Origin: Sulfitobacter sp. W027
GTDB taxonomy: Bacteria > Pseudomonadota > Alphaproteobacteria > Rhodobacterales > Rhodobacteraceae
Reading direction: 5' to 3'
Assembly (NCBI RefSeq): GCF_025143985.1
Contig: NZ_CP083567.1
Coordinates: 124,001 to 188,000 of the forward strand
Length of the DNA stretch: 64,000 nt
Shown: one piece after another, positions 19,489 through 43,334 of the stretch
How positions within the stretch are numbered: position 1 is the first letter of the stretch
How the letters are laid out: each line of letters begins with the position of its first letter
Made by a program: the position numbers and the translations under genes
Notes under the pieces: model-generated
What the model was told of the DNA's origin: nothing
What the model saw: only the letters and a program-made list of their open reading frames with translations
Database searches by the model: none

Positions 19489-20682
19489 TCAGACCCGCTC
19501 CAGCGCGATGGCGATCCCCTGACCGACACCAATACACATGGTGGAAAGGCTTTTTTCGCCGGATTTGAGGTCAAGCATCGCCGTGCCGGTGATCCGCGCG
19601 CCGGACATACCAAGCGGATGGCCAAGCGCAATCGCGCCGCCGTTCCGGTTGACCCGCATATCGTCATCGGCAATGCCAAGATCGCGCAACGTCGCAAGCC
19701 CTTGGCTGGCAAAGGCTTCGTTCAGCTCGAACGCTGCAAAATCGTCGATCGAAAGGCCAAGACGCTCCATCAGCTTTTTCGACGCGGGCGCGGGGCCAAA
19801 GCCCATAATGCGCGGTGCCACGCCTGCGGTGGCACCGCCAAGGACGCGCGCAATCGGCGTAAGCCCGTGTTTTTGCGCCGCCGCCTCCGAGGCCAGAACA
19901 AGCGCCACCGCCCCGTCATTCACCCCCGAGGCATTGCCCGCCGTCACCGTGCCGCCTTCGCGCACGATGGGGCGCAGGCTTGCGAGCTTTTCAAGCGTCG
20001 AAGCGCGCGGATGCTCGTCCGTATCCACAACCGTTTCGCCCTTGCGGGTCTTGATCGTGACCGGAACGATTTCGCGCGCCAATCGCCCGTTGGCGACCGC
20101 GACCGCCGCCTTTTCCTGCGAACGCAGCGCAAAGGCGTCTTGATCCGCGCGGCTGATGCCAAAATCATCCGCAACGTTTTCGGCAGTTTCCGGCATGGAA
20201 TCGACGCCATATTGCGCCTTGAGCAACGGGTTCACAAAGCGCCAGCCGATGGTGGTGTCATAGACAGCGTTATCGCGCGAATACGCGCTTTGCGCCTTTG
20301 GCATCACAAAGGGCGCACGCGACATGCTTTCGACCCCGCCCGCGATCATCAGGTCGGCCTCGCCCGCACGGATCGCCCGCGCCGCCATGGTGATCGCATC
20401 CATGCCAGAGCCGCATAGACGGTTGATCGTCGACCCCGGCACATCAACAGGAAGCCCAGCCAACAGGGCCGACATACGCGCCACATTGCGGTTGTCTTCG
20501 CCCGCCTGATTGGCGCAACCATAAAGCACCTCGTCCACTGCCGCCCAATCGACGCCAGTGTTGCGCTCCATCAAGGCAGTGATCGGCACGGCCCCCAGAT
20601 CATCGGCCCGCACCGGTGCAAGCCCGCCGCCATAGCGGCCGATCGGTGTGCGGATATAATCACAAATGAAAACCTCGGTCAT
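19489..20682 (-). CDS. pcaF: Thiolase, 3-oxoadipyl-CoA thiolase type
   Basis: Cleaves a 3-oxoacyl-CoA; PcaF/PaaJ enzymes give succinyl-CoA and acetyl-CoA from 3-oxoadipyl-CoA. The 397 residues contain nucleophile Cys90 (NRLCGSGMD), the GHPLGMSG His near 355 and Cys383 (TMCIGVGQG). The long blocks IGRYGG, YGCANQAGEDNRNVARM and DTTIGWRFVNP are characteristic of PcaF rather than biosynthetic acetoacetyl-CoA thiolases. Last gene of the minus-strand operon, overlapping the GMC gene by four bases. Whether its partner pathway is adipate-like or another dicarboxylate is inference. Confidence 0.88.
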   Translation of the reverse strand: MTEVFICDYIRTPIGRYGGGLAPVRADDLGAVPITALMERNTGVDWAAVDEVLYGCANQAGEDNRNVARMSALLAGLPVDVPGSTINRLCGSGMDAITMAARAIRAGEADLMIAGGVESMSRAPFVMPKAQSAYSRDNAVYDTTIGWRFVNPLLKAQYGVDSMPETAENVADDFGISRADQDAFALRSQEKAAVAVANGRLAREIVPVTIKTRKGETVVDTDEHPRASTLEKLASLRPIVREGGTVTAGNASGVNDGAVALVLASEAAAQKHGLTPIARVLGGATAGVAPRIMGFGPAPASKKLMERLGLSIDDFAAFELNEAFASQGLATLRDLGIADDDMRVNRNGGAIALGHPLGMSGARITGTAMLDLKSGEKSLSTMCIGVGQGIAIALERV

Positions 20683-22295
20683 GGATTGTCGTGCTCCCTG
20701 GGGTTATTTTGCCGCGCGCTGGCGCGGATGAAATCGGCCGCGCGCGCCCCGATCATGATGCACGGCGCATTGGTATTGCCCGATGGCAGGCACGGCATAA
20801 CCGACGCATCGGCCACGCGCAGCCCGTCAACACCGTGTACTTTCAGCTGCGCATCCACCACCGCCATCGGGTCCGAGGCCGCGCCCATTTTTGCCGTGCC
20901 AACGGGATGATAGACCGTCTTGACGTGCGCGCGGATATAGCTGCGCAAGTCCTCGTCCGTCTCCACATCTGCCGCGGGTCTCTTGCGCTCGGCCAATACG
21001 CTTTGCAGGGCGGGTTGCGCCAACAGATCAAGGCCACGGCGCAGCGCTTGCAACGAAAGCTCCATATCGGCGGGGTCACTCATCACGCCGCTGCGAAACA
21101 GCGGGGGCGCCAGTGGATCGACAGAGCGCAAACGCACCTCGCCGCGCGATTTCGGACGCAGGACGCAAACAGAATAAGTCACGCCATGACCTTCCAGCTG
21201 CATCACGCCTTTGGCGGCATTATATCCGGGCATGAAATGCAGTTGCACATCGGGACGCCCCTGCCCCGCGACGTCAATAAAGCCGCCCGCTTCAACCATA
21301 TTCGACGACAGCAAACCCCTTCGGGTTGCAAGGTAGCGCAGCATATGGAACAGGCCGCGCGGCATCTTGTCCTCGCCCACGACCGAGGTCGCACCACGGG
21401 TTTTGACCTCGACAGGGACAATGGCGTGGTCCTGGAAATTCTGTCCGACACCGGGCAAATCGGCGACCACCTGCACCCCGTGCTGTTCCAGATCAGTACG
21501 GGATCCGATACCTGATCGCATCAGGATCATAGGGCTGGCAAATGCGCCCGCACTCAGAACGACCTCGCGCGACGCCGAGAAACGTTCGCCGTTTGCAAGC
21601 TGGACACCAACGGCGCGTGTGCCCTCGAACAGCACGCGGTCCACCGGTGCCCCGGTGAGGATTGTCAGGTTTTTGCGGCGTTTGGCAGGGCCAAGAAAGG
21701 CCCGCGCAGAAGAGGTACGCCGCCCCTTGCGGGTTGTGGTCTGGAAAAATCCGATGCCCTCTTGCCGCGCGCCGTTAAAGTCGGGGTTCGGCCGGATCTG
21801 GGCTTGGGTGCCGGCTTCGACAAACGCCTTTGACAGCGGGTGCTTGAACTGCGGGCTCGACACGCTCAACGGACCATCAATGCCATGGTAGGCATCGGCA
21901 AAGCTGTCATTGGCCTCAAGACGTTTGAACACCGGCAGCACCTCTTGCCAGCTCCACCCCTCGGCCCCCATCTCGGCCCATCCGTCATAGTCCTGCGGTT
22001 GGCCGCGCAGGTAAAGCATCGCATTGACCGACGATCCGCCACCAAGCACACGGCCCTGCGGCACCACAAAGGGGCGGCCCGCAAGATTGTCTTCCGCCTC
22101 GCCGGTGATCATCACCGCATCACGCCCCTTTTGAATGACCTTGAAAAAGGTCGCGGGGATGTGGACCCACGGGCTTATATCACGGCGACCGCTTTCAAGC
22201 AGCAAAACGCGGCAGTCGCGGCTAGTGCTAAGAAGCCCTGCCAAAGTGGCGCCAGCCGAACCGCCGCCGACGATGATGACATCAAAATCGCGCAT
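20679..22295 (-). CDS. GMC-family FAD-dependent alcohol oxidoreductase
   Basis: A 538-residue glucose-methanol-choline oxidoreductase. The N-terminal FAD-binding motif is VIIVGGGSAGATLA, with GRVLGGGSSVNAMLY and the GMC signature region around residues 85-105. The C-terminal active-site block has YHPVGTAKMG followed by SGNTNAPCIMIG. It would oxidise an alcohol group to aldehyde or ketone. Placed between an acyl-CoA dehydrogenase and a thiolase gene, it probably serves an alcohol on the catabolic substrate; choline is unlikely because no betaine genes are nearby. Confidence 0.88.
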   Translation of the reverse strand: MRDFDVIIVGGGSAGATLAGLLSTSRDCRVLLLESGRRDISPWVHIPATFFKVIQKGRDAVMITGEAEDNLAGRPFVVPQGRVLGGGSSVNAMLYLRGQPQDYDGWAEMGAEGWSWQEVLPVFKRLEANDSFADAYHGIDGPLSVSSPQFKHPLSKAFVEAGTQAQIRPNPDFNGARQEGIGFFQTTTRKGRRTSSARAFLGPAKRRKNLTILTGAPVDRVLFEGTRAVGVQLANGERFSASREVVLSAGAFASPMILMRSGIGSRTDLEQHGVQVVADLPGVGQNFQDHAIVPVEVKTRGATSVVGEDKMPRGLFHMLRYLATRRGLLSSNMVEAGGFIDVAGQGRPDVQLHFMPGYNAAKGVMQLEGHGVTYSVCVLRPKSRGEVRLRSVDPLAPPLFRSGVMSDPADMELSLQALRRGLDLLAQPALQSVLAERKRPAADVETDEDLRSYIRAHVKTVYHPVGTAKMGAASDPMAVVDAQLKVHGVDGLRVADASVMPCLPSGNTNAPCIMIGARAADFIRASARQNNPREHDNP

Positions 22296-22297
22296 TG

Positions 22298-23461
22298 TTA
22301 CGGGGTCACCGCGCGGCGGCGCCGGTCCTGTTTGACGATGTTGAGTTGGTGGATCTGGCTAGTGCCTTCATACAGGCGGAACAGGCGCACATCGCGGTAA
22401 TAGCGTTCGATCGGCGCGTGATCGGCGACATAGCCCGCGCCTCCAAAAACCTGCACCGCGCGATCCGCGACGCGTCCCGATGCTTCGGAGGCGAAATATT
22501 TGCAGATCGAGGCCTCCAGCGCGATGTCCTTCCCCTCGTCGCGGGCACGGGCGGTTTGCAGCACCAGGGCGCGGGCAGCTTCGACATCAACACGGCAATC
22601 CGCCAAAAGCGCCGCAACAAGTTGAAAGTCGATGATCTTCTGGCCCGATTGCTCGCGCTGTTCAGCATGTTCCATCGCCAGGTCAAGCATACGGATCGAC
22701 GGGCCGGTGCACAGCGCGGCCAGATGGATGCGTTGTTTGTTCAACACCTTCATCGCGGTGCGGAACCCCTGCCCTTCGACGCCGCCAATCAGGTTGCGCG
22801 CCGGCACCCGTACATTGTCGAACGTGACCTCGCCCACCGGAGAGCCGCGCTGACCCATCATTTTGTAGGGCGCGCTGGTGCTGACACCGGGGGTGCCACG
22901 TTCGACGACAAAGGCGGACACGCCGCGTGCGCCCGGAATGTCCGGATCGGTGCGCGCCATGACGGTGAAAATATCGGCGATCGGCGCGTTGGTGATGTAG
23001 CATTTGGTGCCGTTAAGCACATAATCATCGCCGTCCTTGCGTGCCGACGTGGTCAGCGCCGTGGCGTCCGACCCCGCGCTGCGTTCGGTCAGCGCGAACG
23101 ACCCGGTGATCTCGCCGCTTGCCAGACGCGGCAGATAGGCGCTCTTTTGTGCGTCGGTGCCATCGGCGACCAAAGCTTCAGAGCCGATGCCGGTGTTGGT
23201 GCCGACCCGCGCGCGGTAGGCCACGCCGCTTTGGCTCAGCTCCATCGCACCCATGACCAACTCTTCGGTGGTCAGGCCAAGGCCGCCGTATTCCTGCGGG
23301 ATCGACCAGCCGAAATAACCGCGCGCCGCCATGTCGGCGACGATCTCGTCGGGCACACGGTCGTTGGCATCGACGCGGTCCTCATTGGGGTGCGCCACCT
23401 CACGCACCCAACGGTGCACGTCCGCCAAAAGCGTATCGAGTTTGTGCTGGTCGCGGATCAT
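22298..23461 (-). CDS. Acyl-CoA dehydrogenase
   Basis: 387-residue flavoprotein that introduces an alpha-beta double bond into an acyl-CoA and passes electrons to ETF. FAD-binding FALTERSAGSD is at about residue 125, and YITNAP near 158. The catalytic Glu is in LYEGTSQIHQL near residue 367, the short- and medium-chain position, so this is a self-sufficient enzyme unlike the pair at 30-32.5 kb. It lies 2 bp from the GMC gene and overlaps the crotonase gene by 4 bp. Confidence 0.92.
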   Translation of the reverse strand: MIRDQHKLDTLLADVHRWVREVAHPNEDRVDANDRVPDEIVADMAARGYFGWSIPQEYGGLGLTTEELVMGAMELSQSGVAYRARVGTNTGIGSEALVADGTDAQKSAYLPRLASGEITGSFALTERSAGSDATALTTSARKDGDDYVLNGTKCYITNAPIADIFTVMARTDPDIPGARGVSAFVVERGTPGVSTSAPYKMMGQRGSPVGEVTFDNVRVPARNLIGGVEGQGFRTAMKVLNKQRIHLAALCTGPSIRMLDLAMEHAEQREQSGQKIIDFQLVAALLADCRVDVEAARALVLQTARARDEGKDIALEASICKYFASEASGRVADRAVQVFGGAGYVADHAPIERYYRDVRLFRLYEGTSQIHQLNIVKQDRRRRAVTP

Positions 23462-24249
23462 GCGGCGCCTCCATTAAAGTTCGGTTTGCGTTTCTCGAGG
23501 AAAGCCGCCAGGCCTTCACCGGCCTCGTTTCCGTAGCGGTAGGCGTTGATCATGCGGCCCTCGTAATCCATTTGATCGGACAGCGCCGCCTGCCCCGCCA
23601 CGGCGATTTCGGCCTTGATGGTGCCGATGGCATCGCGCGCGCCCGCCGCGCAGGCCTTGGCCAACGCAATCCCCGCATCCAACGCCGCGCCCGGCGCTGT
23701 GATCTCGTTTAACGCCCCTGCGGCGAACAGCCGTTCGGCGCTGATCGGGCGGCCCAGCATACACATTTCCGAGACAAGCTGACGCGGCAGCGCCTCGCGC
23801 AAAAAGTAGGTGGCCCCGCCGTCCGGCGTCAGCCCAATTTTCACATAGGCCGCAGTAAATTGCGCCTCCGCGCTGGCCACTGCCATATCGCAAGACAGCG
23901 CCAAAGAGAGGCCCAGCCCCGCAGCGCCACCTTCGATCGCGGCAATCACCGGCTTGGGGCAATTGCGCAACGCCATAATCATCGCAAAAAGCGAATCGGT
24001 GTTCTTGGCCACCTCCGAGCGCGGCGACAGCCGGCTTTGCTCGAGCCCGCGGACATTGCCGCCCGAGGAAAAGAACCCGCCTTCGCCGGTGATGACAATC
24101 GCCCCCACCGCCGAATCGTGCGCGGCGTCCACAAAGGCGGCGGCAAGCGCTTCGTATTGCGTGCGGCCGATGGAGTTTTTGGTTTTCGTCCCCGCCATGG
24201 TCAGCGTCAGAACGCCGCCCGAAAGGCTGCTCTTGATCACGGTTGTCAT
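23458..24249 (-). CDS. Enoyl-CoA hydratase/isomerase (PaaG-like)
   Basis: 263-residue crotonase-fold enzyme. The oxyanion-hole regions are FFSSGGNVRGL and EGGAAGLGLSLALSCD. GLTPDGGATYFL carries an Asp where classic hydratases have the second Glu, and the first Glu position is also changed. This pattern is seen in PaaG-type isomerases, so double-bond isomerisation is as likely as hydration. Confidence 0.85.
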   Translation of the reverse strand: MTTVIKSSLSGGVLTLTMAGTKTKNSIGRTQYEALAAAFVDAAHDSAVGAIVITGEGGFFSSGGNVRGLEQSRLSPRSEVAKNTDSLFAMIMALRNCPKPVIAAIEGGAAGLGLSLALSCDMAVASAEAQFTAAYVKIGLTPDGGATYFLREALPRQLVSEMCMLGRPISAERLFAAGALNEITAPGAALDAGIALAKACAAGARDAIGTIKAEIAVAGQAALSDQMDYEGRMINAYRYGNEAGEGLAAFLEKRKPNFNGGAA

Positions 24250-24257
24250 GATGGCCC

Positions 24258-25466
24258 TCAGATAATTCCGTTGTCGCGCAACTTGGCGATTTGCGCGGTG
24301 TTAAAACCCAGATCGCCAAGGATCGCATCGGTATCCGCGCCCAGGCTTTTGGCCGCCCAACGCACCCGCCCCGGATTGTTGGTCAGGCGCGGCACAACGT
24401 TTTGCATCCGGACCGACCCGAAATCCTCGTCGGGCACATCGGTCACGACATCGCGGGCCTGCACCTGCGCATCCTCGAAAATCTGCTCGACGGAATAGAT
24501 CGGCCCGATTGCGCCACCTTCGCGCTCGAAAGCTTCCAACACCTCGTCCAGCATGTGGTTTTCGATATACTCGGCAAAGATCGCGTCCAGCTCGTCACGG
24601 TGGGCAAGCCGCGCGCGGTTGCCCTTGAAGCGCGGATCGTCGATCATATCGCCGTGGCCGATGGCACGCATATTCGCCGCGTACATATTTTCGGTCGACC
24701 CGGTGACGGTGACATAACGCTGGTCCTTGGTGCGAAACACATTCGCCGGCGCTGTATATTGGTTGTTGTTGCCGTCGCGTTCGCGCACCTGGCCAAGCTG
24801 ATCATATTCAATCGCAAGATTTTCAAGCAACCGAAAGGTCGCCTCGGTAAGGGCCAGATCAATCTCGTCGCCCTTCGTTCCGTTTGCCTTGATCCCGAAA
24901 AGCGCCGCCATGATCGAGAAGGCACCGAACACCCCGCCAAAGGCATCGGCAATCGGATAACCGGGGTGCACCGGCGCGCTGTCTTTCATCCCTGTGATAT
25001 ACGTCAGCCCGCCCATCGCTTCGAAAATCCGTGCGAACCCGCCTTGCCGCGATTTCGGTCCGGTCTGGCCAAAGGCCGACACGCGCAGGATCACAAGGTC
25101 GGGGTTCAACGCCCAAAGCGTGTCGCGATCTAGTCCCCATTTGGCCAGCGTACCGGGACGGAAGTTTTCCACCAGAACGTCATGCTCGGCGATCAGTTTT
25201 TTCATGATCTCAAGCCCCTCGGGCTTGCGCAGGTCCAACGTACCATAGCGTTTGCCACGGTTCGTCACCTTCCACCAAAGCGGTTTGTCATCGCGGAACG
25301 GCGGGAAATACCGCAACCCGTCCCCGCGCCCCGGCATTTCGAATTTCGTAACCTCGGCCCCGAAATCGGCCAGCAACGAGGCCGCAAACGGCGCAGCGAT
25401 GATGGTCGCAATGTCGAGGACCTTCAAACCCTTCAGTGGGCCGCCACCTTCGTCGTGATCCAACAT
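24258..25466 (-). CDS. Family III CoA-transferase (CaiB/BaiF)
   Basis: 402-residue CoA-transferase. The N-terminal LKGLKVLDIATIIAAPFAASLLADFGAEV block is diagnostic (residues 10-39). GRGDGLRYFPP follows, and the catalytic Asp lies in YPIADAFGGVFGA near residue 170. It moves CoA from a donor acyl-CoA to the pathway acid. The ATG at 25466 follows AGGGAGAG and is preferred to the upstream start. It is a second means of activation besides the ligase at 32.5 kb; the donor is unknown. Confidence 0.9.
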   Translation of the reverse strand: MLDHDEGGGPLKGLKVLDIATIIAAPFAASLLADFGAEVTKFEMPGRGDGLRYFPPFRDDKPLWWKVTNRGKRYGTLDLRKPEGLEIMKKLIAEHDVLVENFRPGTLAKWGLDRDTLWALNPDLVILRVSAFGQTGPKSRQGGFARIFEAMGGLTYITGMKDSAPVHPGYPIADAFGGVFGAFSIMAALFGIKANGTKGDEIDLALTEATFRLLENLAIEYDQLGQVRERDGNNNQYTAPANVFRTKDQRYVTVTGSTENMYAANMRAIGHGDMIDDPRFKGNRARLAHRDELDAIFAEYIENHMLDEVLEAFEREGGAIGPIYSVEQIFEDAQVQARDVVTDVPDEDFGSVRMQNVVPRLTNNPGRVRWAAKSLGADTDAILGDLGFNTAQIAKLRDNGII

Positions 25467-25476
25467 CTGTCTCTCC

Positions 25477-26361
25477 CTAGTTCTTCGCACCCTGAAAACG
25501 GGCCTCTTCTATGCCTGTTGCGCCGTGGCCCCGTATGGCGAAAACGCCGCCGCCCTCGGGGTGTTTCGACACCGCGCGCCCCGTGCCGCTGTCGCGGATC
25601 GAGGTCAAAAACAACACATCCATATCGGCACCACCAAAGGCGAGGCTCGACGGCAAATCGACCGGCGCAGGGATGCTGAGCAACAACGTACCATCAGGGG
25701 CGAAACAGCCGATTTGCGCCGAATGGATCAAGGACGCCCACATATTGCCGTCGCGATCCACGGTGGCCCCGTCGATCCCCGAACCAAGCGCGACACAATC
25801 TATATGGGCGCGGATCTGGCCAACAGCGCCGGTTTCGATGTCATATTGCGCCGCGTACGATGTCCGGGCCCGCGTATCCGAAAAATACAGCGTGCCGCCA
25901 TCCGGGCTGAAGCAAACGCCATTGCCGATCATCACACCGGTCTTTGCCAATACACGATCTGTAGACAGGCCAAAGCTGTGCAGATTGCCAATGGCTTCGC
26001 CACCGCGTCCCATTCCGATACAAACGAAACGGCCCTGCCGATCAAGTTTGCCATCATTCAGCCGCATCGCCTCCGGCGCATCCTCGACGCCACCCAAAAG
26101 CTGTTCGACTTTGGTGTCGGGGTCAAGCCACATGACGCGCCTGTCGATGGTGGCCACGATACCGGCCCCCTCGACCAAGGCGATGGCGCCAACATGGCCC
26201 GTCACCTCCAGCGTTTGCACGCTACCGTCTGCGCGGCGTTCGTGGATTTTGCCAGCCACCCCGTCGATCCACCAAAGGCTTTGGTTCTGGCTGTCCCAAA
26301 CGGGGCTTTCCCCCAGACAGTCAAAACCGGTGTCGAGCCGTTCGATCTGCACCTTACCCAT
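25477..26361 (-). CDS. SMP-30/gluconolactonase family hydrolase
   Basis: 294-residue six-bladed beta-propeller, a metal-dependent lactonase family. Metal-ligand regions are visible: LGESPVWD (Glu near 17), NGVCFSPDGGTLYFSDT (Asn) and GIDGATVDRDGNMWAS (Asp). It probably opens a lactone intermediate. In this island it could act after the luciferase-type monooxygenase if that is a Baeyer-Villiger enzyme. The ATG at 26361 overlaps the tctA stop by 8 bases. Confidence 0.85.
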   Translation of the reverse strand: MGKVQIERLDTGFDCLGESPVWDSQNQSLWWIDGVAGKIHERRADGSVQTLEVTGHVGAIALVEGAGIVATIDRRVMWLDPDTKVEQLLGGVEDAPEAMRLNDGKLDRQGRFVCIGMGRGGEAIGNLHSFGLSTDRVLAKTGVMIGNGVCFSPDGGTLYFSDTRARTSYAAQYDIETGAVGQIRAHIDCVALGSGIDGATVDRDGNMWASLIHSAQIGCFAPDGTLLLSIPAPVDLPSSLAFGGADMDVLFLTSIRDSGTGRAVSKHPEGGGVFAIRGHGATGIEEARFQGAKN

Positions 26362-35688: not shown

Positions 35689-36666
35689 ATGACCACATTC
35701 ACACGAAGAAACCTGATCGCTGCTGTTGGCTTCGCAACATCCGCAATGATCGCGCCGATCGGCGCCTTTGCCGACTCGGGCGACCCCATTACACTCGTCG
35801 TGCCTTATGGTGGCGGCGGCCTGATTGACGGCCTCGTTCGCGAAATCGGCGACATGATGTCCGAAGATCTCGGCCAACCGGTTATCGTCGAGAACAAGCC
35901 CGGATCGAACGGCATCATCGGCGCGACCTATGCCGCCGCCGCAAAGCCTGATGGCCAAACATATTTCATCGGGGCCACTGGCCCGCTGTCGCTCAATGTC
36001 ATGCTGCGCGAGGGGTTGACTTATGACCTCGACAGCTTCGAGCCGGTTGGCACCATGATGAGCGGCCCTCTCACCGTCACCATCCCCGCGTCGATCGAAG
36101 CCAACACACTCGAAGAGCTGAAAGCCTATGCGATCGAACTCGGGCAGCCCCTGCGCTACGCAACCCTCGGGCCAGGTTCGGTGACGCATCTGTTCGGCAA
36201 GGTTCTTCAGGATAAGCTCGGCGTTGAAATGGTTGACGTGGCTTACGCCGACAACCCCTCTGCGGTTGTCGACCTGATTGGCGGCCTGAACGATCTGAAC
36301 TTCTCGACCCCGATCTCGCTGGTGAAATACCAACAGGCCGGAGATGTGAAGATGCTGGCCATTTCGTCGCCCGAACGCCACGAGAAATTCCCAGATCTGC
36401 CGACCACGACCGAACTCGGCTATCCCGAATTGGTGTCGTCCTTCTGGTTCGGTTTGCTAGCCCCCAAAGGCACGCCGCAAAACGAAATCGTGCGCGTGTC
36501 GGCAGCATTGCAGAACGCCATGCAAGACGAAGCGATCCAAACCAAGATGAACAACGTTGGCATGACCCCCGAAGTGGGCGGTGTGGATGCGATGCAGGCC
36601 CAACTTGATTGGGACAAGGATTTCTGGGGCAGCGTCATCAAAGAAAACAACATCACCCTCGAATAA
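35689..36666 (+). CDS. tctC: Tripartite tricarboxylate transporter, periplasmic substrate-binding receptor
   Basis: 325 residues with a signal peptide carrying a twin-Arg-like TRRNLIAAVGF start and cleavage after a GAFA box. The mature part is a TctC-type receptor (ITLVVPYGGGGLIDGLVREI, VENKPGSNGIIGATYAA). GGGAGGA precedes the ATG at 35689. It captures the imported carboxylate for TctAB. It is transcribed divergently from the catabolic operon that contains tctBA and shares its operators, so importer and catabolic genes are probably induced together. Confidence 0.92.
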   Translation: MTTFTRRNLIAAVGFATSAMIAPIGAFADSGDPITLVVPYGGGGLIDGLVREIGDMMSEDLGQPVIVENKPGSNGIIGATYAAAAKPDGQTYFIGATGPLSLNVMLREGLTYDLDSFEPVGTMMSGPLTVTIPASIEANTLEELKAYAIELGQPLRYATLGPGSVTHLFGKVLQDKLGVEMVDVAYADNPSAVVDLIGGLNDLNFSTPISLVKYQQAGDVKMLAISSPERHEKFPDLPTTTELGYPELVSSFWFGLLAPKGTPQNEIVRVSAALQNAMQDEAIQTKMNNVGMTPEVGGVDAMQAQLDWDKDFWGSVIKENNITLE

Positions 36667-36694
36667 CACGGGCGACCATTTGAAATAGCAACGC

Positions 36695-36818: not shown

Positions 36819-37445
36819 CTAGCCGGGTTTAGCAAGCACACCGCCCAGAATGATATCGGCGTATTGATCGACAATATCTTCGGGGGTCAGCGATTTATCC
36901 GGATCATGCCAGCGGTGCATCCAGTTGATCCCCGACAACACTAGGCGGCCGGTCATCGCCGGATCGACGGGGTTAAACTCGCCCGACTGAACTCCCTCCT
37001 TGATGATTTCGCGCAGCATACTCTCGAACTCGCGGCGGCGCGCCAATCGGCGTTCCATCCGGTGCCGGTCGGGATCGGACCAAAACGCATTGCTCGCCGC
37101 CACCCACGCCGAGCGATGGTCGGCGTAGAACTTCGCCGCCGCGCCCATGTAGGCGCGCAATTTCTCGGCGGCGCTGCCGTTTTCGGGGATACGTGTGCGC
37201 ACAAAGGCATTCAAATGGCGCGTCGCCGAAAACGCGATGCGCGCATAGATGTCTTCCTTGCTGGTGAAGTGGTGATACAAAAGTGCTTTTGACACCCCCG
37301 CGGCGGTGGCCAAATCGCGCATAGATGTGGCGTCATAGCCTTTTTCCGCGAACAGCGAAGTGCTCTTATCAAGGATGAACTGCATCCTTTCGCTTACCAA
37401 CTCATCTACGTCGGTTGCGGCGCCTTCGGCGGACCTATCTGTCAT
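36819..37445 (-). CDS. TetR-family transcriptional regulator
   Basis: 208 residues. The N-terminal TetR helix-turn-helix is at about 22-65 (STSLFAEKGYDATSMRDLAT, SKALLYHHFTSKEDIYAR), followed by an all-helical ligand domain. It is most likely the repressor that recognises TGACCGGCCGGTCA, because two copies of that palindrome control the divergent tctC/catabolic promoters. A close variant lies 46 bp upstream of its own gene, implying autoregulation. The ligand may be a pathway acyl-CoA. Confidence 0.9.
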   Translation of the reverse strand: MTDRSAEGAATDVDELVSERMQFILDKSTSLFAEKGYDATSMRDLATAAGVSKALLYHHFTSKEDIYARIAFSATRHLNAFVRTRIPENGSAAEKLRAYMGAAAKFYADHRSAWVAASNAFWSDPDRHRMERRLARRREFESMLREIIKEGVQSGEFNPVDPAMTGRLVLSGINWMHRWHDPDKSLTPEDIVDQYADIILGGVLAKPG

Positions 37446-37491
37446 TTGTTCTTATCCGCCTCATTTCAGCTTACCGAGCATCGCACGTGAC

Positions 37492-37505: not shown

Positions 37506-37525
37506 AGTTGGGTAAACCGCTTAAA

Positions 37526-38434
37526 TTACCGCAGCTTATCCCAATTTTTGACGACGAAATCAATGTAGTGGCGCAGTTTGGCGGGCACATAGGGCGTTTG
37601 CAGGTAGGTCACGAAAATGCCCTCGTCAAAGGTGGTGTTGGTGACGCGGATGTCGGGCAGCAATTGCACTAACCGCCCCTCGCGCAAGTCATCGGCCACG
37701 GTGTATTCATCCAGCAGGGCGATGCCTCTGCCCGCCCGCGCCATTTCCAGCAGGACCAGACCGTTGTTCGACATGAAGGCTGTCGGCACGCTGATCTCTT
37801 CGGCCGCGCCGTCGTCGTGACGCCGGAACCGCCAGAACACCGGTTCGGTATTAAGCCAATAAGTCAGACAGGCATGGTTATGAATATCCACGGGTTGGGT
37901 CAGCGGTGGGGCATCATCCAGATAGCCGCGCGAGGCCACGAGGATGCGGCGCGAATGAAACAATCGCCGCCGCACCAACCCCGCCTCTTCGGGGGGGGCG
38001 ATGCGAAAATCAAGATCGAATTTGTCCTCACGCAACCGCACCGGCCCCTCGGACAAATGCAAATCCAAGATCAACTGCGGATTGGCCTTTTGAAATTCCG
38101 GCTGCAACCGGGCAAGGACTGAGACCCCGAACATGGTCCGCGAATGCACGCGCAGAACACCCTGAACCAGGTTTTGTTGGGCGGTGGCATTGGTTTCGGC
38201 CATTTTGAGGTTGGCCAAAATCTCGCCCGCGTCATGCAAGAAGATTTCGCCGCTCTCTGTCAGGACCAGCGCCCGCGTCGAACGCAGGACGAGTGCGACA
38301 CCCAGAGAGTCTTCAAGCGCGCTGACATGTCGCGAGACCGAAGCCGGAGACAGCCCGTACCGCCGCCCCGCCGCAGAAAAACTGCCGGTTTCGGCAATCG
38401 CCACGAAAAGCTCCATTGCGCGCAGCTTGTCCAT
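37526..38434 (-). CDS. LysR-family transcriptional regulator
   Basis: 302 residues with the LysR winged helix at 5-60 (FVAIAETGSFSAAGRRYGLS, PASVSRHVSALEDSLGVAL) and an effector domain from about 90. It is divergent from the luciferase-type monooxygenase gene 106 bp away and probably regulates that two-gene unit, the usual LysR arrangement. The effector is unknown. Confidence 0.9.
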   Translation of the reverse strand: MDKLRAMELFVAIAETGSFSAAGRRYGLSPASVSRHVSALEDSLGVALVLRSTRALVLTESGEIFLHDAGEILANLKMAETNATAQQNLVQGVLRVHSRTMFGVSVLARLQPEFQKANPQLILDLHLSEGPVRLREDKFDLDFRIAPPEEAGLVRRRLFHSRRILVASRGYLDDAPPLTQPVDIHNHACLTYWLNTEPVFWRFRRHDDGAAEEISVPTAFMSNNGLVLLEMARAGRGIALLDEYTVADDLREGRLVQLLPDIRVTNTTFDEGIFVTYLQTPYVPAKLRHYIDFVVKNWDKLR

Positions 38435-38453
38435 CCTCCACCTTTCAACATTT

Positions 38454-38501
38454 TGAAAAACTGAACTGCATTTTCATCATCTTCCCGCGAATATTGCAAT
38501 A
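38454..38501. promoter_or_regulatory. Possible LysR binding sites in the lysR-monooxygenase intergenic region
   Basis: An interrupted dyad TGAAAA-N11-TTTTCA (38454-38476) has the spacing of a LysR box. A perfect palindrome TATTGCAATA (38492-38501) lies nearer the monooxygenase gene. Confidence 0.45.
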
Positions 38502-38540
38502 ATGTATCTTGGTTTCACCATTCATCAGGGAGGAACTATC

Positions 38541-39611
38541 ATGGATTTCGGTGCATTCATTCTCGCGCAGCAGCGCGGCTATCATCAATCCTCGCACGAG
38601 GTTATCGCCAATGCGGTCGAGCAAACCGTCATGGCCGAGCAGGTCGGGTTCTCGAACGCCTGGTATGCCGAACACCACTTCAACAACTATTCGCTGTCGC
38701 CCTCGCCCCTGATGATGGTGGCCCATACGGCGGCGAAAACCACAACCATCCGCCTCGGATCGGCCGTCTGCATCCTGCCGCTCTACCATGCGCCGCGCTT
38801 TCTCGCCGAAGTCGGCTTTGTCGACTCGCTGTCGAACGGCCGCCTCGAATTGGGCATCGGTTCGGGCTATCAGGATTTCGAATTCCAGCGCTTCGGCACC
38901 AATCTGGACGATTCCAGCAAGATCTTCGAAGAATATCTCGACGTGATCCCCAAAGCGCTGTGCGAGAAGATTTTCGAGCATCACAGCGAACATCTCGACA
39001 TCCCGCCGTCGTCGATTGCGACCCGTCCGATGCAAGATCCGATGCCGCCGATCTGGGTCACCACCGGCAACCCGAAACTGCGCGAACGCGCCTTCCGCGA
39101 AGGCTGGAACCTGTTCGTGACCGCGCTTTTGGGCGGTATGGACCAAATCAAACACGTGCGCGGTCAGGTCGACCAGGCGATCGAAGCTTCGGGCACCGAT
39201 GGATCCAAATCACGCCTCGGCTTCCTGCGGGTTGGCTATGCCTCCGACAATACGGCGGAAATCGATCACTATCTCGAAAATGCCCTGTTCCAGCGTCGCC
39301 TGTCGTTCAGCCTCAAGAACCGCACCCAACAGACCGACGATGGCTATCTCATGAAAGAGGTGCCAACCGACAGCGATCCGACCCTTGAAGAGCTGAAAAA
39401 GAACCTGCCCGTGGGCAGCGTCAATCAGGTCATCGACCGCCTGCTGGCCGAGATCGAGGTGCTCAAACCCGATCACATCGCCTTGCAAACCCAATTGGGT
39501 GACTTCGATCAAAAGACGATGCTCAAGCAAATGGAAGTTTGGGGCGACAAGATCATCCCGGCGATCCAGAAAGAGGTCGGCGCCGGCACCAAACTGATCG
39601 CTGCGGAGTAA
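38541..39611 (+). CDS. Luciferase-like flavin-dependent monooxygenase
   Basis: 356 residues, bacterial luciferase superfamily, using reduced FMN supplied by a separate reductase. Typical blocks are AEQVGFSNAWYAEHHFNNYS, LGSAVCILPLYHAPRFLAE, DSLSNGRLELGIGSGYQDFEF and PPIWVTTGNP. GGGAGGA precedes the ATG at 38541; the 13-residue upstream extension is rejected. Relatives include type II Baeyer-Villiger monooxygenases (diketocamphane enzymes), so ring-ketone oxidation to a lactone is an attractive possibility. The exact reaction cannot be told from sequence. Confidence 0.88.
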   Translation: MDFGAFILAQQRGYHQSSHEVIANAVEQTVMAEQVGFSNAWYAEHHFNNYSLSPSPLMMVAHTAAKTTTIRLGSAVCILPLYHAPRFLAEVGFVDSLSNGRLELGIGSGYQDFEFQRFGTNLDDSSKIFEEYLDVIPKALCEKIFEHHSEHLDIPPSSIATRPMQDPMPPIWVTTGNPKLRERAFREGWNLFVTALLGGMDQIKHVRGQVDQAIEASGTDGSKSRLGFLRVGYASDNTAEIDHYLENALFQRRLSFSLKNRTQQTDDGYLMKEVPTDSDPTLEELKKNLPVGSVNQVIDRLLAEIEVLKPDHIALQTQLGDFDQKTMLKQMEVWGDKIIPAIQKEVGAGTKLIAAE

Positions 39612-39615
39612 ACCC

Positions 39616-40416
39616 ATGCGCTTGGTTCTCACCCCCGGTGCCCTGCCCAGGCTTGAGGGCGCCCACGACTTCAAACGATTCTCCGTCGCGGTTCCGGCCG
39701 CGGCAGAGGACGGCATGGACGCGCTGGTCGCGCCGATCGGTGATCGGGCCGAAGATGGCGCGCATGTCTGGGTTCGCCCCGATGCGATCCGCGCCCTGAC
39801 GCCCCACGCCGGAGAGACAGCATGGGCGGCAGGGTTCGACGCGATGGTCGGCTTTGCCGAACGCTCGGGTTGGACCGACGCGGCCGGCCGCATCCGCGCC
39901 CATATCGAACGGATCAAAGCCCCGGCGCCCGTGGACGCGGATGCGTTCCGCGATGCCATGCGCCGTTTTGCATCGGGTGTCTGCATTGTTGCCGCGGGCG
40001 AAGGTGATGCCCGCTGCGGGATGACCGTATCGGCGTTTTCGTCGGTTTCGGCTGAACCGCCGATGGTTCTGGTCTGCCTCAACCGCTCCTCCGGATCGCA
40101 TGAATGCGTCACCGGCGCCGCAACCTTCTCAGTCAATATTCTCTCTGCCGAGCAGGAAGAGGAAGCCATGGTGTTTGCCGGTCAACGCGGTCGCCACGGG
40201 CCGGATCGTTTCGGGGATGTCTGGCAGCAGGATGCATTGAGAACACCGGTTCTGACAACGGCCCACCACGCGTTGATCTGCGCAAGCGACAGCCAGCATC
40301 ATTCCGGCAGCCACACCATTCTGGTTGGCCGCGTGATCGGCGCTTATTCCGGCAATACGGAAGGGGCGCTGCTCAACTACAACGGGGCCTTGCGCCAAGG
40401 TAACTGGGCAGCCTGA
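39616..40416 (+). CDS. Flavin reductase with an unusual N-terminal extension
   Basis: 266 residues. Residues 110-262 are an HpaC/RutF-type flavin reductase (RDAMRRFASGVCIVAAG, CGMTVSAFSSVSAEPPMVLV, FSVNILS, HTILVGRVIG). It supplies reduced flavin to the monooxygenase encoded 4 bp upstream. The first 105 residues form a separate region I do not recognise (ARP-rich, with a HVWVRPDAIRAL stretch), possibly for docking to the partner enzyme. A strong terminator follows the gene. Confidence 0.87.
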   Translation: MRLVLTPGALPRLEGAHDFKRFSVAVPAAAEDGMDALVAPIGDRAEDGAHVWVRPDAIRALTPHAGETAWAAGFDAMVGFAERSGWTDAAGRIRAHIERIKAPAPVDADAFRDAMRRFASGVCIVAAGEGDARCGMTVSAFSSVSAEPPMVLVCLNRSSGSHECVTGAATFSVNILSAEQEEEAMVFAGQRGRHGPDRFGDVWQQDALRTPVLTTAHHALICASDSQHHSGSHTILVGRVIGAYSGNTEGALLNYNGALRQGNWAA

Positions 40417-40441
40417 TTCCTCCCTATCAGGTTCGACCAGA

Positions 40442-40472
40442 AGGCGATCCGCTTATACGGATCGCCTTTTTT
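40442..40472 (+). terminator. Rho-independent terminator after the monooxygenase-reductase pair
   Basis: AGGCGATCCG and CGGATCGCCT form a perfect 10-bp stem with a CTTATA loop and a run of six T. It closes the plus-strand unit and abuts the convergent SnoaL-type gene. Confidence 0.93.
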
Positions 40473-40993
40473 CATGTCCCGATGCGATAGACCGGATCAT
40501 CGGGAAACACCCCGCCAATCGGTTGCCGCAGGCCAAAACGGTCGACTTCGGACTCCTCCGGCACCGCTTGCGGTTCCACCCAGTCATAGACCACGACACG
40601 ATGCGCAATGCGCCACGCGCCGCCCCGCTTCTCGAAACGGTCACAATAGCGGCCCGAAAGCATGGCTTGTCGCGTGATACCATCGACCCCCTCCCCGCGT
40701 TGCAGCGCGAGGAAATAGCTTTCGACATCCGCACGGCCATCGCCAAGCAAATCAATCAGGATGTTGTTGATGTGATGCACATTACGCGCCCCACGCGCCC
40801 AAGCGCCCCGCACCCGATCATAAAACTCTTCGACCGGACCAGAGGTCGCGCCGTGTTGGTCCCATGCGCCGGGCCAATACGCACTTTGCAGGGCGGCTTC
40901 ATCCGCTCTGTCGATGCCGCGCGCATAGCGAAACAAACAGTCCCGGATCAATTCGCGGTCGGCCAGATCATCGGTCGATATGCCAGTGCTCAT
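40472..40993 (-). CDS. SnoaL-like (NTF2-fold) protein
   Basis: 173 residues of the SnoaL_4/NTF2-like fold: DLADRELIRDCLFRYARGID, HHINNILIDLLGDGRADVESYF and WRIAHRVVVYDWV. Family members are small isomerases, dehydratases, epoxide hydrolases or hydroxylating-dioxygenase beta-like proteins. A GAGGAAATTCC site precedes the ATG. Transcribed after paaH and a crotonase gene (61-bp gap), so it likely acts on an intermediate of the same pathway. The reaction is unknown. Confidence 0.8.
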   Translation of the reverse strand: MSTGISTDDLADRELIRDCLFRYARGIDRADEAALQSAYWPGAWDQHGATSGPVEEFYDRVRGAWARGARNVHHINNILIDLLGDGRADVESYFLALQRGEGVDGITRQAMLSGRYCDRFEKRGGAWRIAHRVVVYDWVEPQAVPEESEVDRFGLRQPIGGVFPDDPVYRIGT

Positions 40994-41054
40994 GGAATTT
41001 CCTCCTCAAGATCAAAGATGCACCGCCCAGACATCTGTGCGGGCGGTGCGGTGG

Positions 41055-42560
41055 TCAGTCGTCCGCGCTAAGCGACAAGCCAAGCCGCGCGCGCCGCTTC
41101 AACCAAAGACTTGGACGGTAGCGGTCGGACCCGGTCGTGTCTTGCAACGCGTCCATCGTCTCCAGAACCCTGCCCGCACCCAACAAATCGCCATGATCCA
41201 GCGGGTTGAACGGATAGTTCAGACCCAAAGTCATTGCCTTGCCAAGGTCTTCGGGGCTACCGACCCCGATCTGCGCCATCTCGCAGCACAGGTTCACGAT
41301 CATCGCAATGATACGCGGCGCGACAAATCCGGGGCTGTCCCTGATCACCTCGACATGCAGTCCGGCCTTGCCAAGCCACGCCGCGACATCCTCAAGCACG
41401 TCCGAACCGCCGGGCGCGGTCATGATCGTGACCACCCCCAAGGCAAGCGCCGACAGATCCACCGCAACCGTGCGCTTCGGGTCCAGACCCAGACGCGCGA
41501 CGACGCCCGTGCAATCCTCGCCGTTCGGGCTGACCAGAATGGGCATTTTTCCGTCATCCGTCCCGGCAACAAGCCCCTTTTCAACCAGCCCGGCAAAGCG
41601 GTCGGTGGCTTCGGGCAACACAACGGGCAGCGCGGTCACCGGTCCGGCCACCGGCGGGCTCGGCATCGGGCTTGGCGGCTTGGGGCCATCTTCGGCGTAA
41701 TCATAGAACCCCTGACCGCTCTTGCGACCCAACAGCCCCGCCTCGACCATATAGCCATGCCCGGCCGTGGTGCGCAGACGCGGATCGCTCTGGTAGCCTT
41801 CGAAAATCAGGCGCGACACGGGAAAATTGACGTCCATGCCGGTCAGGTCCATCAATTCGAACGGCCCCATACGGAACCCCGCCGCCATTTTCATGATCCG
41901 GTCAATCTGCTCCGGCGCGGCCACGCCTTCGCTCTCGATATGCAGGGCCTCGGTGTAATAGGCCCGCCCGCCCAGGTTGACGATAAATCCGGGGCCGTCC
42001 TTGGCCAACACCGGCACTTTGCCCATCGCATCAGACAGCGCAATCGTGGTGTCGATCACCGCCTGATCCGTGGATGCGCCGCCGATCACCTCGACCAGCT
42101 TCATCAACGGCACCGGATTGAAAAAATGCATCCCCACCACGCGGCCGCGGTTTTCGCAGGCCTTGGCGATCGAGGCGATCGACAGTGACGAGGTGTTCGA
42201 TGCCAGGATGGTTTGCGCGCCGACGATGGATTCAAGATCGGTGAACAGCTTTTGCTTGATGTCCAGCCGCTCGATGATGGCCTCGATGACCAACTGCGCA
42301 TCGGCCAATGTGGACAGATCGGCGGAAATCTTCAGCCGCCCTTTTGCGGCTGCGGCAGCCTTGCTGGTGATCCGGCCCTTTTCCGCAAGACGGTCGATGC
42401 GGTCCCCGATACTGCTGCGCGCACGGCTCAGGGCGTCGGCGTTCATGTCGTTCAAAATGACGTCGTATCCCGATGTCATCAACACCTGCGCGATGCCCGC
42501 GCCCATCAGACCGGCGCCGATCACGCCAACCGTTTTAATGTCTTCAAATGTATAGGCCAC
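41055..42560 (-). CDS. paaH: 3-hydroxyacyl-CoA dehydrogenase (PaaH-type)
   Basis: 501 residues. NAD-binding GVIGAGLMGAGIAQVL is at 13-28, the active-site region ASNTSSLSIASIA and MHFFNPVPLMKLVEVI at 115-155, and duplicated C-terminal domains (GFIVNLGGRAYYTEAL; NLCCEMAQIGVGSPEDLGKA). This long two-domain form is typical of PaaH/DcaH, which oxidises 3-hydroxyadipyl-CoA to 3-oxoadipyl-CoA. The PcaF-type thiolase at 19.5 kb would be the next enzyme. Four bases separate it from the crotonase gene. Confidence 0.88.
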   Translation of the reverse strand: MAYTFEDIKTVGVIGAGLMGAGIAQVLMTSGYDVILNDMNADALSRARSSIGDRIDRLAEKGRITSKAAAAAKGRLKISADLSTLADAQLVIEAIIERLDIKQKLFTDLESIVGAQTILASNTSSLSIASIAKACENRGRVVGMHFFNPVPLMKLVEVIGGASTDQAVIDTTIALSDAMGKVPVLAKDGPGFIVNLGGRAYYTEALHIESEGVAAPEQIDRIMKMAAGFRMGPFELMDLTGMDVNFPVSRLIFEGYQSDPRLRTTAGHGYMVEAGLLGRKSGQGFYDYAEDGPKPPSPMPSPPVAGPVTALPVVLPEATDRFAGLVEKGLVAGTDDGKMPILVSPNGEDCTGVVARLGLDPKRTVAVDLSALALGVVTIMTAPGGSDVLEDVAAWLGKAGLHVEVIRDSPGFVAPRIIAMIVNLCCEMAQIGVGSPEDLGKAMTLGLNYPFNPLDHGDLLGAGRVLETMDALQDTTGSDRYRPSLWLKRRARLGLSLSADD

Positions 42561-42563
42561 GAG

Positions 42564-43334
42564 TCAATTTCCTGTAAATACGGGGGAGCGTTTTTCGAGA
42601 AAGGCGCGCATCCCCTCTTTTTGATCGTCGGTCGAGAACAACATCTGAAACAAACGGTTCTCCAGCATCAGCGCGGTGTCGAGCGGCGCGTTGCCGCCCT
42701 CGTGCACCGCTTCCTTGATCGCCCGCACGGCTTGCGCAGGTTGCGCCGCGATGGTGGCCGCCATCCCAAGTGCTGCCGACATCACCTCGGCATCTGGCAC
42801 CACCTCAGAGACAATGCCCATATCCATCGCCACATCGGCAGAAAACATGTCGCCCGTCAGCAGATAGCGCAAAGCTTTGGCCTTGCCCGCGCTGCGCAAC
42901 AGCTTTTGCGTGCCGCCCGCCCCCGGCATGATCCCGACCTTGATCTCGGGTTGGCCGAATTTTGCCGTATCCCCTGCGATCACGATGTCGCACATCATGG
43001 CAAGCTCGCATCCCCCGCCAAGCGCCAGCCCGCGCACCGCGGCGATCACCGGCGTACGCGCCGCCTCGATCGCGCGTTTGGCCGCAGACAAGCGGTCGAA
43101 CACCTCGCCCATGGGCCGCGCCTCCGCCAGTTCACCAAGGTCCGCCCCCGCCGCGAAAGCCTTTTCATCGCCGGTCAGAACGATACAGCGCACCTTTGGG
43201 TCGGCATCAAGTTCGGCCACCGCCGCTGCGATTTCCGCGCGCAGGGCGCTGGATAGGGCGTTGCGCCGCTCGGGGCGGTTAAGACGGATAATCGCAACCC
43301 GATCTTCGCCTCTTTCGATAAGAACCAATGACAT
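42564..43334 (-). CDS. Enoyl-CoA hydratase (PaaF-like)
   Basis: 256 residues with both catalytic regions intact: RGLALGGGCELAMMCD (first Glu) and FGQPEIKVGIMPGAGG (second). Of the three crotonases in the island it best fits a true 2-enoyl-CoA hydratase. AGGAGGGAAAC precedes the ATG. First gene of the paaF-like/paaH/SnoaL unit. Confidence 0.9.
   Translation of the reverse strand: MSLVLIERGEDRVAIIRLNRPERRNALSSALRAEIAAAVAELDADPKVRCIVLTGDEKAFAAGADLGELAEARPMGEVFDRLSAAKRAIEAARTPVIAAVRGLALGGGCELAMMCDIVIAGDTAKFGQPEIKVGIMPGAGGTQKLLRSAGKAKALRYLLTGDMFSADVAMDMGIVSEVVPDAEVMSAALGMAATIAAQPAQAVRAIKEAVHEGGNAPLDTALMLENRLFQMLFSTDDQKEGMRAFLEKRSPVFTGN

What the first reader, a model, noticed from the sequence alone, without database searches (positions are those of the whole stretch)
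19489..43334. Candidate new catabolic pathway converging on 3-oxoadipyl-CoA
Seen: TctABC importer, ADP-forming acyl-CoA ligase, CaiB CoA-transferase, three acyl-CoA dehydrogenases, three crotonases, PaaH-type dehydrogenase, PcaF-type thiolase, GMC oxidoreductase, two SDRs, SMP-30 lactonase-like protein, SnoaL-like protein, and a luciferase-type monooxygenase with reductase. Known: PaaH and PcaF act on 3-hydroxyadipyl- and 3-oxoadipyl-CoA; luciferase-type enzymes can be Baeyer-Villiger oxygenases. Inferred: a cyclic alcohol or ketone is oxidised (GMC/SDR), expanded to a lactone, opened (SMP-30), activated and shortened to succinyl-CoA and acetyl-CoA. No ring-hydroxylating or ring-cleaving dioxygenase is present in the island, arguing against a simple aromatic substrate.
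Basis: inference. Interest (0 to 1): 0.75.

Follow-up and report, generated by a model that had tools for sequence, protein, structure and literature searches.

The report
Unassigned carboxylic-acid degradation gene cluster
A bacterial contig of plasmid size carries a block of about 20 genes, patchily shared with distantly related bacteria, that looks like a set for importing a ring-shaped organic acid, opening the ring with a luciferase-like oxygenase and burning the pieces, but what it eats is not known.

Summary
In 82 loci chosen by the luciferase-type monooxygenase (LLM), a core recurs in alpha-, beta- and gammaproteobacteria: crotonase ECH64, ADP-forming CoA ligase, an unequal acyl-CoA dehydrogenase pair, two SDRs, LLM plus flavin reductase, SMP-30 protein, LysR and TctC/Bug receptor. 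CaiB, the third dehydrogenase and the oxepin-type crotonase were found in the window's order only in five alphaproteobacterial relatives. PcaF, PaaH, the third crotonase and GMC are peripheral, so convergence on 3-oxoadipyl-CoA rests on few loci. On five nif-carrying plasmids a related LLM lies in a P450/NTF2-like/SDR/LLM operon, which fits an 'alcohol to ketone, then oxygen insertion' role. Best explanation: an aerobic, CoA-dependent pathway for an alicyclic carboxylic acid with ketone-directed ring opening. Substrate, Baeyer-Villiger step and end products are inferred. No paper search found the cluster described.

The parts
19489..20682 (-). PcaF-type 3-oxoadipyl-CoA thiolase; peripheral
   Evidence: TIGR02430 676 bits, cut-off 597; in 2 of 82 loci and beside the cluster in 1 of 10 genomes with wider flanks, Sagittula
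20679..22295 (-). GMC oxidoreductase (alcohol dehydrogenase or oxidase); peripheral
   Evidence: beside the cluster in Sagittula, Mesobacterium and Pseudooceanicola
22298..23461 (-). ACAD1, third acyl-CoA dehydrogenase; alphaproteobacterial lower module
   Evidence: 77-89% in five relatives; 9 of 82 loci in 10-kb flanks
23458..24249 (-). ECHox, crotonase of the 'oxepin-CoA hydrolase, alternative type' group
   Evidence: NF046063 307.9 bits, cut-off 300; 59-78% in five relatives
24258..25466 (-). CaiB-type CoA transferase
   Evidence: 79-89% in five relatives
25477..26361 (-). SMP-30/gluconolactonase-type protein (start corrected), proposed lactonase; core
   Evidence: four aligned metal-site positions invariant in 61 of 61
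26354..27880 (-). TctA permease (start corrected)
27882..28328 (-). TctB permease subunit
28370..29617 (-). SDR2: SDR with an extra C-terminal region that by eye resembles a degenerate half-SDR
   Evidence: the NGR234 counterpart has two SDR stretches
29617..30378 (-). SDR1, short-chain dehydrogenase; core
30353..31354 (-). ACADb, shorter, divergent acyl-CoA dehydrogenase-like protein, proposed partner subunit of ACADa; core
   Evidence: adjacent to ACADa in 61 of 82 loci
31358..32542 (-). ACADa, proposed catalytic subunit; Glu248 invariant, usual C-terminal Glu absent; core
32539..34677 (-). ADP-forming acyl-CoA ligase (start corrected); His265 invariant in 53 of 53; core
34679..35452 (-). 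ECH64, crotonase with one of the two hydratase glutamates (start corrected); core
35689..36666 (+). TctC/Bug-type periplasmic receptor
36819..37445 (-). TetR-family regulator
37526..38434 (-). LysR-family regulator, divergent from LLM
38541..39611 (+). LLM, luciferase-type monooxygenase; core
39616..40416 (+). Flavin reductase with about 105 extra N-terminal residues; core
40472..40993 (-). SnoaL/NTF2-like protein
   Evidence: 14 of 82 loci; 54-61% identical in five of five nif-linked operons inspected
41055..42560 (-). 3-hydroxyacyl-CoA dehydrogenase (below the PaaH cut-off); peripheral
42564..43334 (-). ECHf, enoyl-CoA hydratase-like; peripheral

Best explanation
The island most likely encodes an aerobic, CoA-dependent pathway for an imported alicyclic carboxylic acid. 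Proposed steps, all inferred from gene content: TctABC imports the acid; the ADP-forming ligase makes the thioester; the ACADa/ACADb pair desaturates it next to the carbonyl; ECH64 and SDR1/SDR2 (GMC in this strain) add water and oxidise the resulting alcohol, giving a ring ketone; the LLM monooxygenase, fed reduced flavin by the adjacent reductase, inserts oxygen beside the ketone; the SMP-30 protein hydrolyses the lactone. In some alphaproteobacteria the released acid is re-thioesterified by CaiB and shortened by ACAD1 and ECHox; in this strain the PaaH-like enzyme, ECHf and PcaF could take a C6 dicarboxylyl-CoA through 3-oxoadipyl-CoA to succinyl-CoA and acetyl-CoA. Shown: gene content, operon layout, conservation of the core, kept active-site positions. 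Not shown: substrate, order of steps, any reaction, end products.
For: Of 82 loci chosen by the LLM: FR 77, ACADa 71, ECH64 71, LIG 69, SMP30 62, ACADb 61, TctC-like 61. The six-gene block ECH64-LIG-ACADa-ACADb-SDR1-SDR2 is contiguous in 43 of 82; LLM and FR are same-strand neighbours within 600 bases in 60 places. ACADa's best solved match is Tcur3483 of the heteromer 6WY8/6WY9, and 4X28 chain A is fourth; Glu248 is invariant in 72 of 72 ACADa sequences and aligns with a Glu in those chains. ACADb's best NCBIfam family is IpdE2, far below its cut-off (65 against 450 bits). The aligned SMP-30 metal-site positions are invariant in 61 of 61. On five of five nif-carrying plasmids inspected, an LLM 57-59% identical lies with a P450 and an NTF2-like protein 54-61% identical to SnoaL, in four of five also with a double SDR: hydroxylase, alcohol dehydrogenase, oxygenase.
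Against: No substrate-specific signature was found. The LLM model scores higher with luciferase, 2I7G and the epoxidase RslO1 than with diketocamphane monooxygenase. ACADb's best solved matches are ordinary short-chain dehydrogenases over about 110 residues (48 bits); the steroid-type partner chains 6WY8_A and 4X28_D come only at ranks 11 and 17 (40.5 and 38.7 bits), though over longer stretches (33-295, 33-320), so the steroid-type heteromer is weakly supported. ECH64 lacks the second hydratase glutamate, so the hydration step is uncertain. With PcaF as query no thiolase was found in 80 of 82 loci within the DNA held. Lactonase is only one known activity of SMP-30 proteins (recalled).
Confidence: 0.4

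Rival explanations
1. LLM epoxidises an unsaturated or aromatic CoA thioester rather than a ketone, and ECHox (oxepin-CoA hydrolase-like) and ECH64 isomerise or hydrolyse the product, as in phenylacetate-type pathways.
Against: ECHox was not the best match anywhere in the 82 loci within the DNA held and was found only in the wider flanks of five alphaproteobacteria, so it is unlikely to be the general partner of LLM. The nif-linked P450/SDR/LLM operons fit ketone chemistry better.
Confidence: 0.15
2. The pathway degrades a branched or isoprenoid acyclic acid, and LLM oxidises an aldehyde or ketone in a side chain as bacterial luciferase does.
For: Luciferase alpha chains are among the closest sequence and fold matches. 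The position of the ACADa glutamate also suits branched substrates (role of the position recalled). ACADb's best solved matches are short-chain dehydrogenases.
Against: ACADa's best solved match is a steroid-type heteromer subunit. An SMP-30 lactonase-like protein, present in 62 of 82 loci, has no obvious role.
Confidence: 0.15
3. LLM-FR cleaves an N-heterocycle in the manner of trigonelline monooxygenase TgnAB.
For: One relative at 69% identity (P0088) carries the database name 'Flavin-dependent trigonelline monooxygenase, oxygenase component'; names of others are cut off after 'Flavin-dependent' or 'Flavin-dependent tr'.
Against: The names may be transferred from a distant hit; TgnB itself was not compared. 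As recalled, the Tgn pathway does not use CoA thioesters, unlike this core.
Confidence: 0.1
4. The stretch is a mosaic: the TctABC/ligase/ACADab/LLM core is one pathway, and pcaF, GMC, PaaH and ECHf belong functionally to other routes such as the protocatechuate pathway at 1.5-14 kb.
For: PcaH, PcaB, PcaD and a 3-oxoadipate:acetyl-CoA acetyltransferase pass equivalog cut-offs in the same window. The PcaF tree shows no clade restricted to the cluster. Of 13 thiolase loci inspected (L138-L150), 7 have pcaJ beside them, 2 are the Sagittula and W074 cluster copies and one is only 38% identical.
Against: pcaF overlaps GMC by 4 nt in the window and follows GMC in Sagittula too, with no pcaIJ found in the 7.4 kb beyond it. 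A further pcaF sits in the W074 cluster and one in L032.
Confidence: 0.2

Closest known systems
Camphor pathway of Pseudomonas putida (two-component diketocamphane monooxygenases, CoA ligation, ring lactonisation; pathway details recalled)
   Same: Luciferase-type oxygenase plus separate flavin reductase, alcohol dehydrogenases, a CoA ligase.
   Different: LLM only distantly related (E 4e-7 over residues 20-110 to 4UWM); no P450 or FMO-type Baeyer-Villiger enzyme among the island genes scanned; the ACAD pair and Tct importer are recalled as absent from the CAM cluster.
Cyclohexanecarboxylate pathway AliA-AliB-BadK-BadH-BadI (recalled)
   Same: Ligase, acyl-CoA dehydrogenase, crotonase, SDR in series on a carboxylic acid.
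   Different: No BadI-type ring hydrolase identified; LLM-FR and SMP-30 instead; two unequal dehydrogenase subunits; SDR1 only 137 bits against a BadH cut-off of 431.
Steroid-type heteromeric acyl-CoA dehydrogenases (4X28; Tcur3481-3483, 6WY8)
   Same: Two unlike adjacent dehydrogenase genes; ACADa best matches one chain and shares its aligned Glu.
   Different: ACADb matches the partner chains only at ranks 11 and 17; no steroid-specific gene recognised in the island.
SAR202 proposal for alicyclic dissolved organic matter (PMC5395668; abstract start and passages seen)
   Same: Proposes choline-dehydrogenase-like and SDR enzymes priming substrates for luciferase-type Baeyer-Villiger enzymes.
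   Different: A genome-level proposal in another lineage; the passages seen describe no operon with ligase, paired dehydrogenases, SMP-30 and Tct.
nif-linked P450/NTF2-like/SDR/LLM operon (NGR234 and relatives)
   Same: Homologous LLM, NTF2-like protein and SDR.
   Different: A P450, and of the window's 22 proteins only LLM, SnoaL and SDR matches were found in the stretches examined.

Membership tests
Type II (two-component, FMN-dependent) Baeyer-Villiger monooxygenase | Luciferase-type TIM-barrel oxygenase with separate flavin reductase | tested here: met
   Bac_luciferase and Flavin_Reduct Pfam matches, adjacent genes; fold
Type II (two-component, FMN-dependent) Baeyer-Villiger monooxygenase | Close relation to the characterised diketocamphane enzymes | tested here: inconclusive
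Type II (two-component, FMN-dependent) Baeyer-Villiger monooxygenase | Ketone to ester or lactone activity | not testable with these tools
   needs enzyme assay
Lower pathway through 3-oxoadipyl-CoA | 3-oxoadipyl-CoA thiolase | tested here: met
   TIGR02430 and NF006551 above cut-off
Lower pathway through 3-oxoadipyl-CoA | PaaH and PaaF equivalogs in the island | tested here: not met
   PaaH 426 against 669, PaaF 269 against 371; the other crotonases 120 and 169 against the PaaF cut-off 371
Lower pathway through 3-oxoadipyl-CoA | Thiolase conserved with the cluster | tested here: not met
   2 of 82 loci; 1 of 10 genomes with wider flanks
Heteromeric (alpha2beta2) acyl-CoA dehydrogenase | Two unlike adjacent dehydrogenase genes, one with the alternative glutamate and without the usual C-terminal one | tested here: met
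   adjacent in 61 of 82 loci; Glu248 72 of 72, Ala in 71 of 72 at the usual site
Heteromeric (alpha2beta2) acyl-CoA dehydrogenase | Each subunit closest to one of the two chains of a known heteromer | tested here: inconclusive
   ACADa yes; ACADb only at ranks 11 and 17
Heteromeric (alpha2beta2) acyl-CoA dehydrogenase | Heterotetramer assembly | not testable with these tools
   needs purification
Cyclohexanecarboxylate (Ali/Bad) pathway | BadH equivalog | tested here: not met
   SDR1 137 bits against 431
Cyclohexanecarboxylate (Ali/Bad) pathway | BadI ring hydrolase | tested here: inconclusive
   no BadI family among those listed for the three crotonases, but only the best 25 of 64, 68 and 72 families are shown
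Trigonelline monooxygenase TgnAB | Orthology to TgnB | not tested
   TgnB sequence not at hand; only a database name seen
Phenylacetate (paa)-type oxepin pathway | Multicomponent ring epoxidase PaaABCE | tested here: not met
   none among the island genes scanned with Pfam

The most novel reading that the evidence does not exclude
A widespread, so far unassigned aerobic strategy for alicyclic carboxylic acids: CoA-thioester chemistry with a paired, unequal acyl-CoA dehydrogenase installs a ring ketone, and an uncharacterised clade of luciferase-type monooxygenases plus an SMP-30 lactonase opens the ring instead of a BadI-type hydrolase. The same oxygenase clade also works in a nif-linked P450 operon of rhizobia that acts on a plant-side or symbiotic alicyclic compound.
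Probability: 0.25. Interest if true: 0.7.

Novelty: new variant of a known kind. Interest (0 to 1): 0.5.

Why it matters
If right, it would assign a function to a cluster found in marine and soil proteobacteria and to a clade of luciferase-type oxygenases that reaches no curated family cut-off. It would give a culturable system (for example Sagittula marina) for testing the proposal that such enzymes open alicyclic rings of dissolved organic matter or plant compounds, and would offer a handle on an unexplained operon beside nif genes in rhizobia.

Tried and rejected
Rejected: 'convergence on 3-oxoadipyl-CoA' as the defining feature. A cluster-specific PcaF clade: the window and Sagittula copies group with a copy that lies beside pcaIJ. 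A composite transposon: a repeat search of 16.5-47.5 kb (30 nt or more) gave no repeat pair flanking the island. Plasmid proof from repC: the contig with the window is 306,357 bp, but the one repC found is on contig C3, so 'plasmid' is not shown.

Led nowhere: nine answered paper searches listed no paper that I recognised, from titles and starts of abstracts, as describing this cluster; a tenth, for the NGR234 genes, found only an unrelated paper. Of the papers listed I looked inside two, by passages only (PMC11354265; PMC5395668). The library lacks most subscription papers, so a published description may be missed. ORF clustering was spoilt by shadow ORFs. Pfam scans of ten neighbours in other loci showed varied functions with no common theme. 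The fold search did not separate Baeyer-Villiger from other LLM activities.

Limits of counts: the 82 loci are 79 distinct genome-contig loci (the best 80 of 127 confirmed stretches kept) plus 3 plasmid loci; all were chosen by the LLM, and most genome loci hold 10 kb or less on each side, so distant members are undercounted (GMC and ECHox are 0 of 82 there, yet present in wider flanks). Each piece of DNA was given to its best query (tblastn 1e-10; query coverage at least 40%, 35%), so SDR2, TctC, ECH64, PaaH and CaiB counts include paralogues; the CaiB matches in the 82 loci are only 26-41% identical. The alignments left out short or truncated orthologues (for instance 53 ligases of 69).


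Full report
Observation. The window lies in a genome of 4,147,109 bases, on a contig of 306,357 bases. Fourteen minus-strand genes, from ECH64 (start 35452) to pcaF (end 19489), lie so close (-26 to +41 nt) that one operon is likely. TctC is divergent upstream; further on lie TetR, LysR, the divergent LLM-flavin reductase pair, SnoaL, a 3-hydroxyacyl-CoA dehydrogenase and a third crotonase. G+C is somewhat raised in the island and transposase genes or fragments flank it. None of 35 other genomes of the genus has a close LLM (their listed matches are at most 37% identical), and 4 of 295 genomes of the family, the own one included, have one at E 1e-120. The cluster is patchy and probably moves between lineages (inference).

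Corrections to names. PcaF is well supported (676 bits against a cut-off of 597). The 'PaaH-type' enzyme and the third crotonase fall below the PaaH and PaaF cut-offs. ECHox just passes the 'oxepin-CoA hydrolase, alternative type' cut-off. The LLM reaches no NCBIfam cut-off: its best is 116 bits against 462.

What is conserved. The LLM found 127 stretches encoding relatives in the genome collection, of which 79 distinct loci were kept; three plasmid loci were added. Of these 82: LLM 82, LysR 78, FR 77, SDR2-like 73, ACADa 71, ECH64 71, LIG 69, SMP30 62, ACADb 61, TctC-like 61, SDR1 59, TetR 22, CaiB-like 20 (26-41% identical), SnoaL 14, ACAD1 9, TctB 8, TctA 7, PaaH-like 6, ECHf-like 5, PcaF 2, GMC 0, ECHox 0. 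The six-gene block is contiguous in 43 of 82; same-strand neighbours within 600 bases were counted 66 times for ECH64-LIG, 64 for LIG-ACADa, 61 for ACADa-ACADb and 60 for LLM-FR. Most loci hold 10 kb on each side or less, so further flanks of ten genomes were fetched. Sagittula has pcaF-GMC-ACAD1-ECHox-CaiB-SMP30-TctA-TctB in the window's order; Mesobacterium and Pseudooceanicola have this without pcaF; Aquibium and a Mesorhizobium lack GMC too; the other five genomes show fewer of these genes or none. So there is a general core, a lower module in some alphaproteobacteria (CaiB, ACAD1, ECHox) and a peripheral set (GMC, PcaF, PaaH, ECHf).

PcaF. PcaF lies in the cluster in the window and Sagittula, in a differently built cluster on a Sulfitobacter plasmid and beside LLM-FR in one metagenome-assembled genome contig (L032). 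The tree of PcaF shows no clade restricted to the cluster. Of 13 thiolase loci inspected in relatives (L138-L150), 7 have pcaJ beside them. The window also carries, at 1.5-14 kb, PcaB, PcaD, PcaH and a 3-oxoadipate:acetyl-CoA acetyltransferase (each above an equivalog cut-off), a QuiC-like protein below its cut-off (599 against 1200), electron-transfer flavoprotein genes and a 3-oxoacid CoA-transferase subunit A; PcaG, PcaC and PcaJ were placed there by length, order and sequence only. 3-Oxoadipyl-CoA chemistry in this region therefore need not belong to the island's pathway.

Enzyme detail. ACADa's best solved match is Tcur3483 of the heteromer 6WY8/6WY9 (104 bits), with 4X28 chain A fourth. 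ACADb matches the partner chains only at ranks 11 and 17 (40.5 and 38.7 bits), behind ordinary short-chain dehydrogenases (48 bits over about 110 residues); its best NCBIfam family is IpdE2 (65 bits against a cut-off of 450). ACADa keeps Glu248 in 72 of 72 sequences and has Ala in 71 of 72 where most acyl-CoA dehydrogenases have their glutamate (role of these positions recalled). The ligase keeps His265 in 53 of 53. The SMP-30 protein keeps Glu48, Asn132, Asn177 and Asp227 (numbered in the longer ORF) in 61 of 61, aligned with regucalcin (the metal ligands are recalled). ECH64 keeps the first crotonase glutamate in 71 of 71, but at the position aligned with the second has Arg in 67, Leu in 2 and Asp in 2 of 71 (roles recalled), so it may be an isomerase or C-C hydrolase rather than a plain hydratase.

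nif-linked counterpart. On five of five plasmids inspected (Sinorhizobium NGR234, Mesorhizobium AR10, Rhizobium 007, R. gallicum, Agrobacterium pusense) an LLM 57-59% identical lies near nif genes with a P450, an NTF2-like protein 54-61% identical to the window's SnoaL and, in four of five, an SDR with two halves each 31-38% identical to SDR2. In Rhizobium 007 only a short SDR fragment is annotated. A hydroxylase, an alcohol dehydrogenase and this oxygenase together fit ketone-directed oxygen insertion; this is inference.

Reading. The best-supported reading is an aerobic, CoA-dependent pathway for an imported alicyclic acid, with ring opening by LLM-FR and SMP-30 (confidence 0.4). The SAR202 paper (PMC5395668; start of abstract and passages seen) proposed similar chemistry for alicyclic dissolved organic matter. 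Rivals are epoxidation, acyclic branched acids, N-heterocycle cleavage and a mosaic of two pathways. No paper describing this cluster was recognised in the listings; a library of openly licensed papers cannot exclude one.

Noticed in passing
window 1506-7918 and 10889-14000: Protocatechuate/beta-ketoadipate genes outside the finding: PcaB, PcaD, a 3-oxoadipate:acetyl-CoA acetyltransferase, PcaH, probable PcaG and PcaC, a QuiC-like protein, electron-transfer flavoprotein genes and a 3-oxoacid CoA-transferase.
   Followed up: partly
L023, L168, L169, L170, L171: P450/(ferredoxin)/NTF2-like/double-SDR/LLM operon near nif genes on five plasmids, function unknown.
   Followed up: partly
L022 17028-22873: A second module beside the cluster in Pseudosulfitobacter: FMO-like flavoprotein, flavin reductase, NTF2-like protein, second ADP-forming ligase and SMP-30 protein.
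   Followed up: partly
window 39616-39930: The flavin reductase has about 105 N-terminal residues outside the Flavin_Reduct domain; about 54 of 74 aligned orthologues have residues there. No function assigned.
   Followed up: partly
window 15750-17385: HipA-like kinase with a small HTH-like protein beside it (by eye), between the protocatechuate genes and the island.
   Followed up: no
window 9946-10824, 18506-19066, 43522-46672: Several transposase genes or fragments (IS1595-type, IS240-type, Mutator, rve/HTH_21-type).
   Followed up: no
L051, L055, L066, L075: Several Burkholderiales clusters hold two LLM copies with a TctC/Bug gene between them.
   Followed up: no
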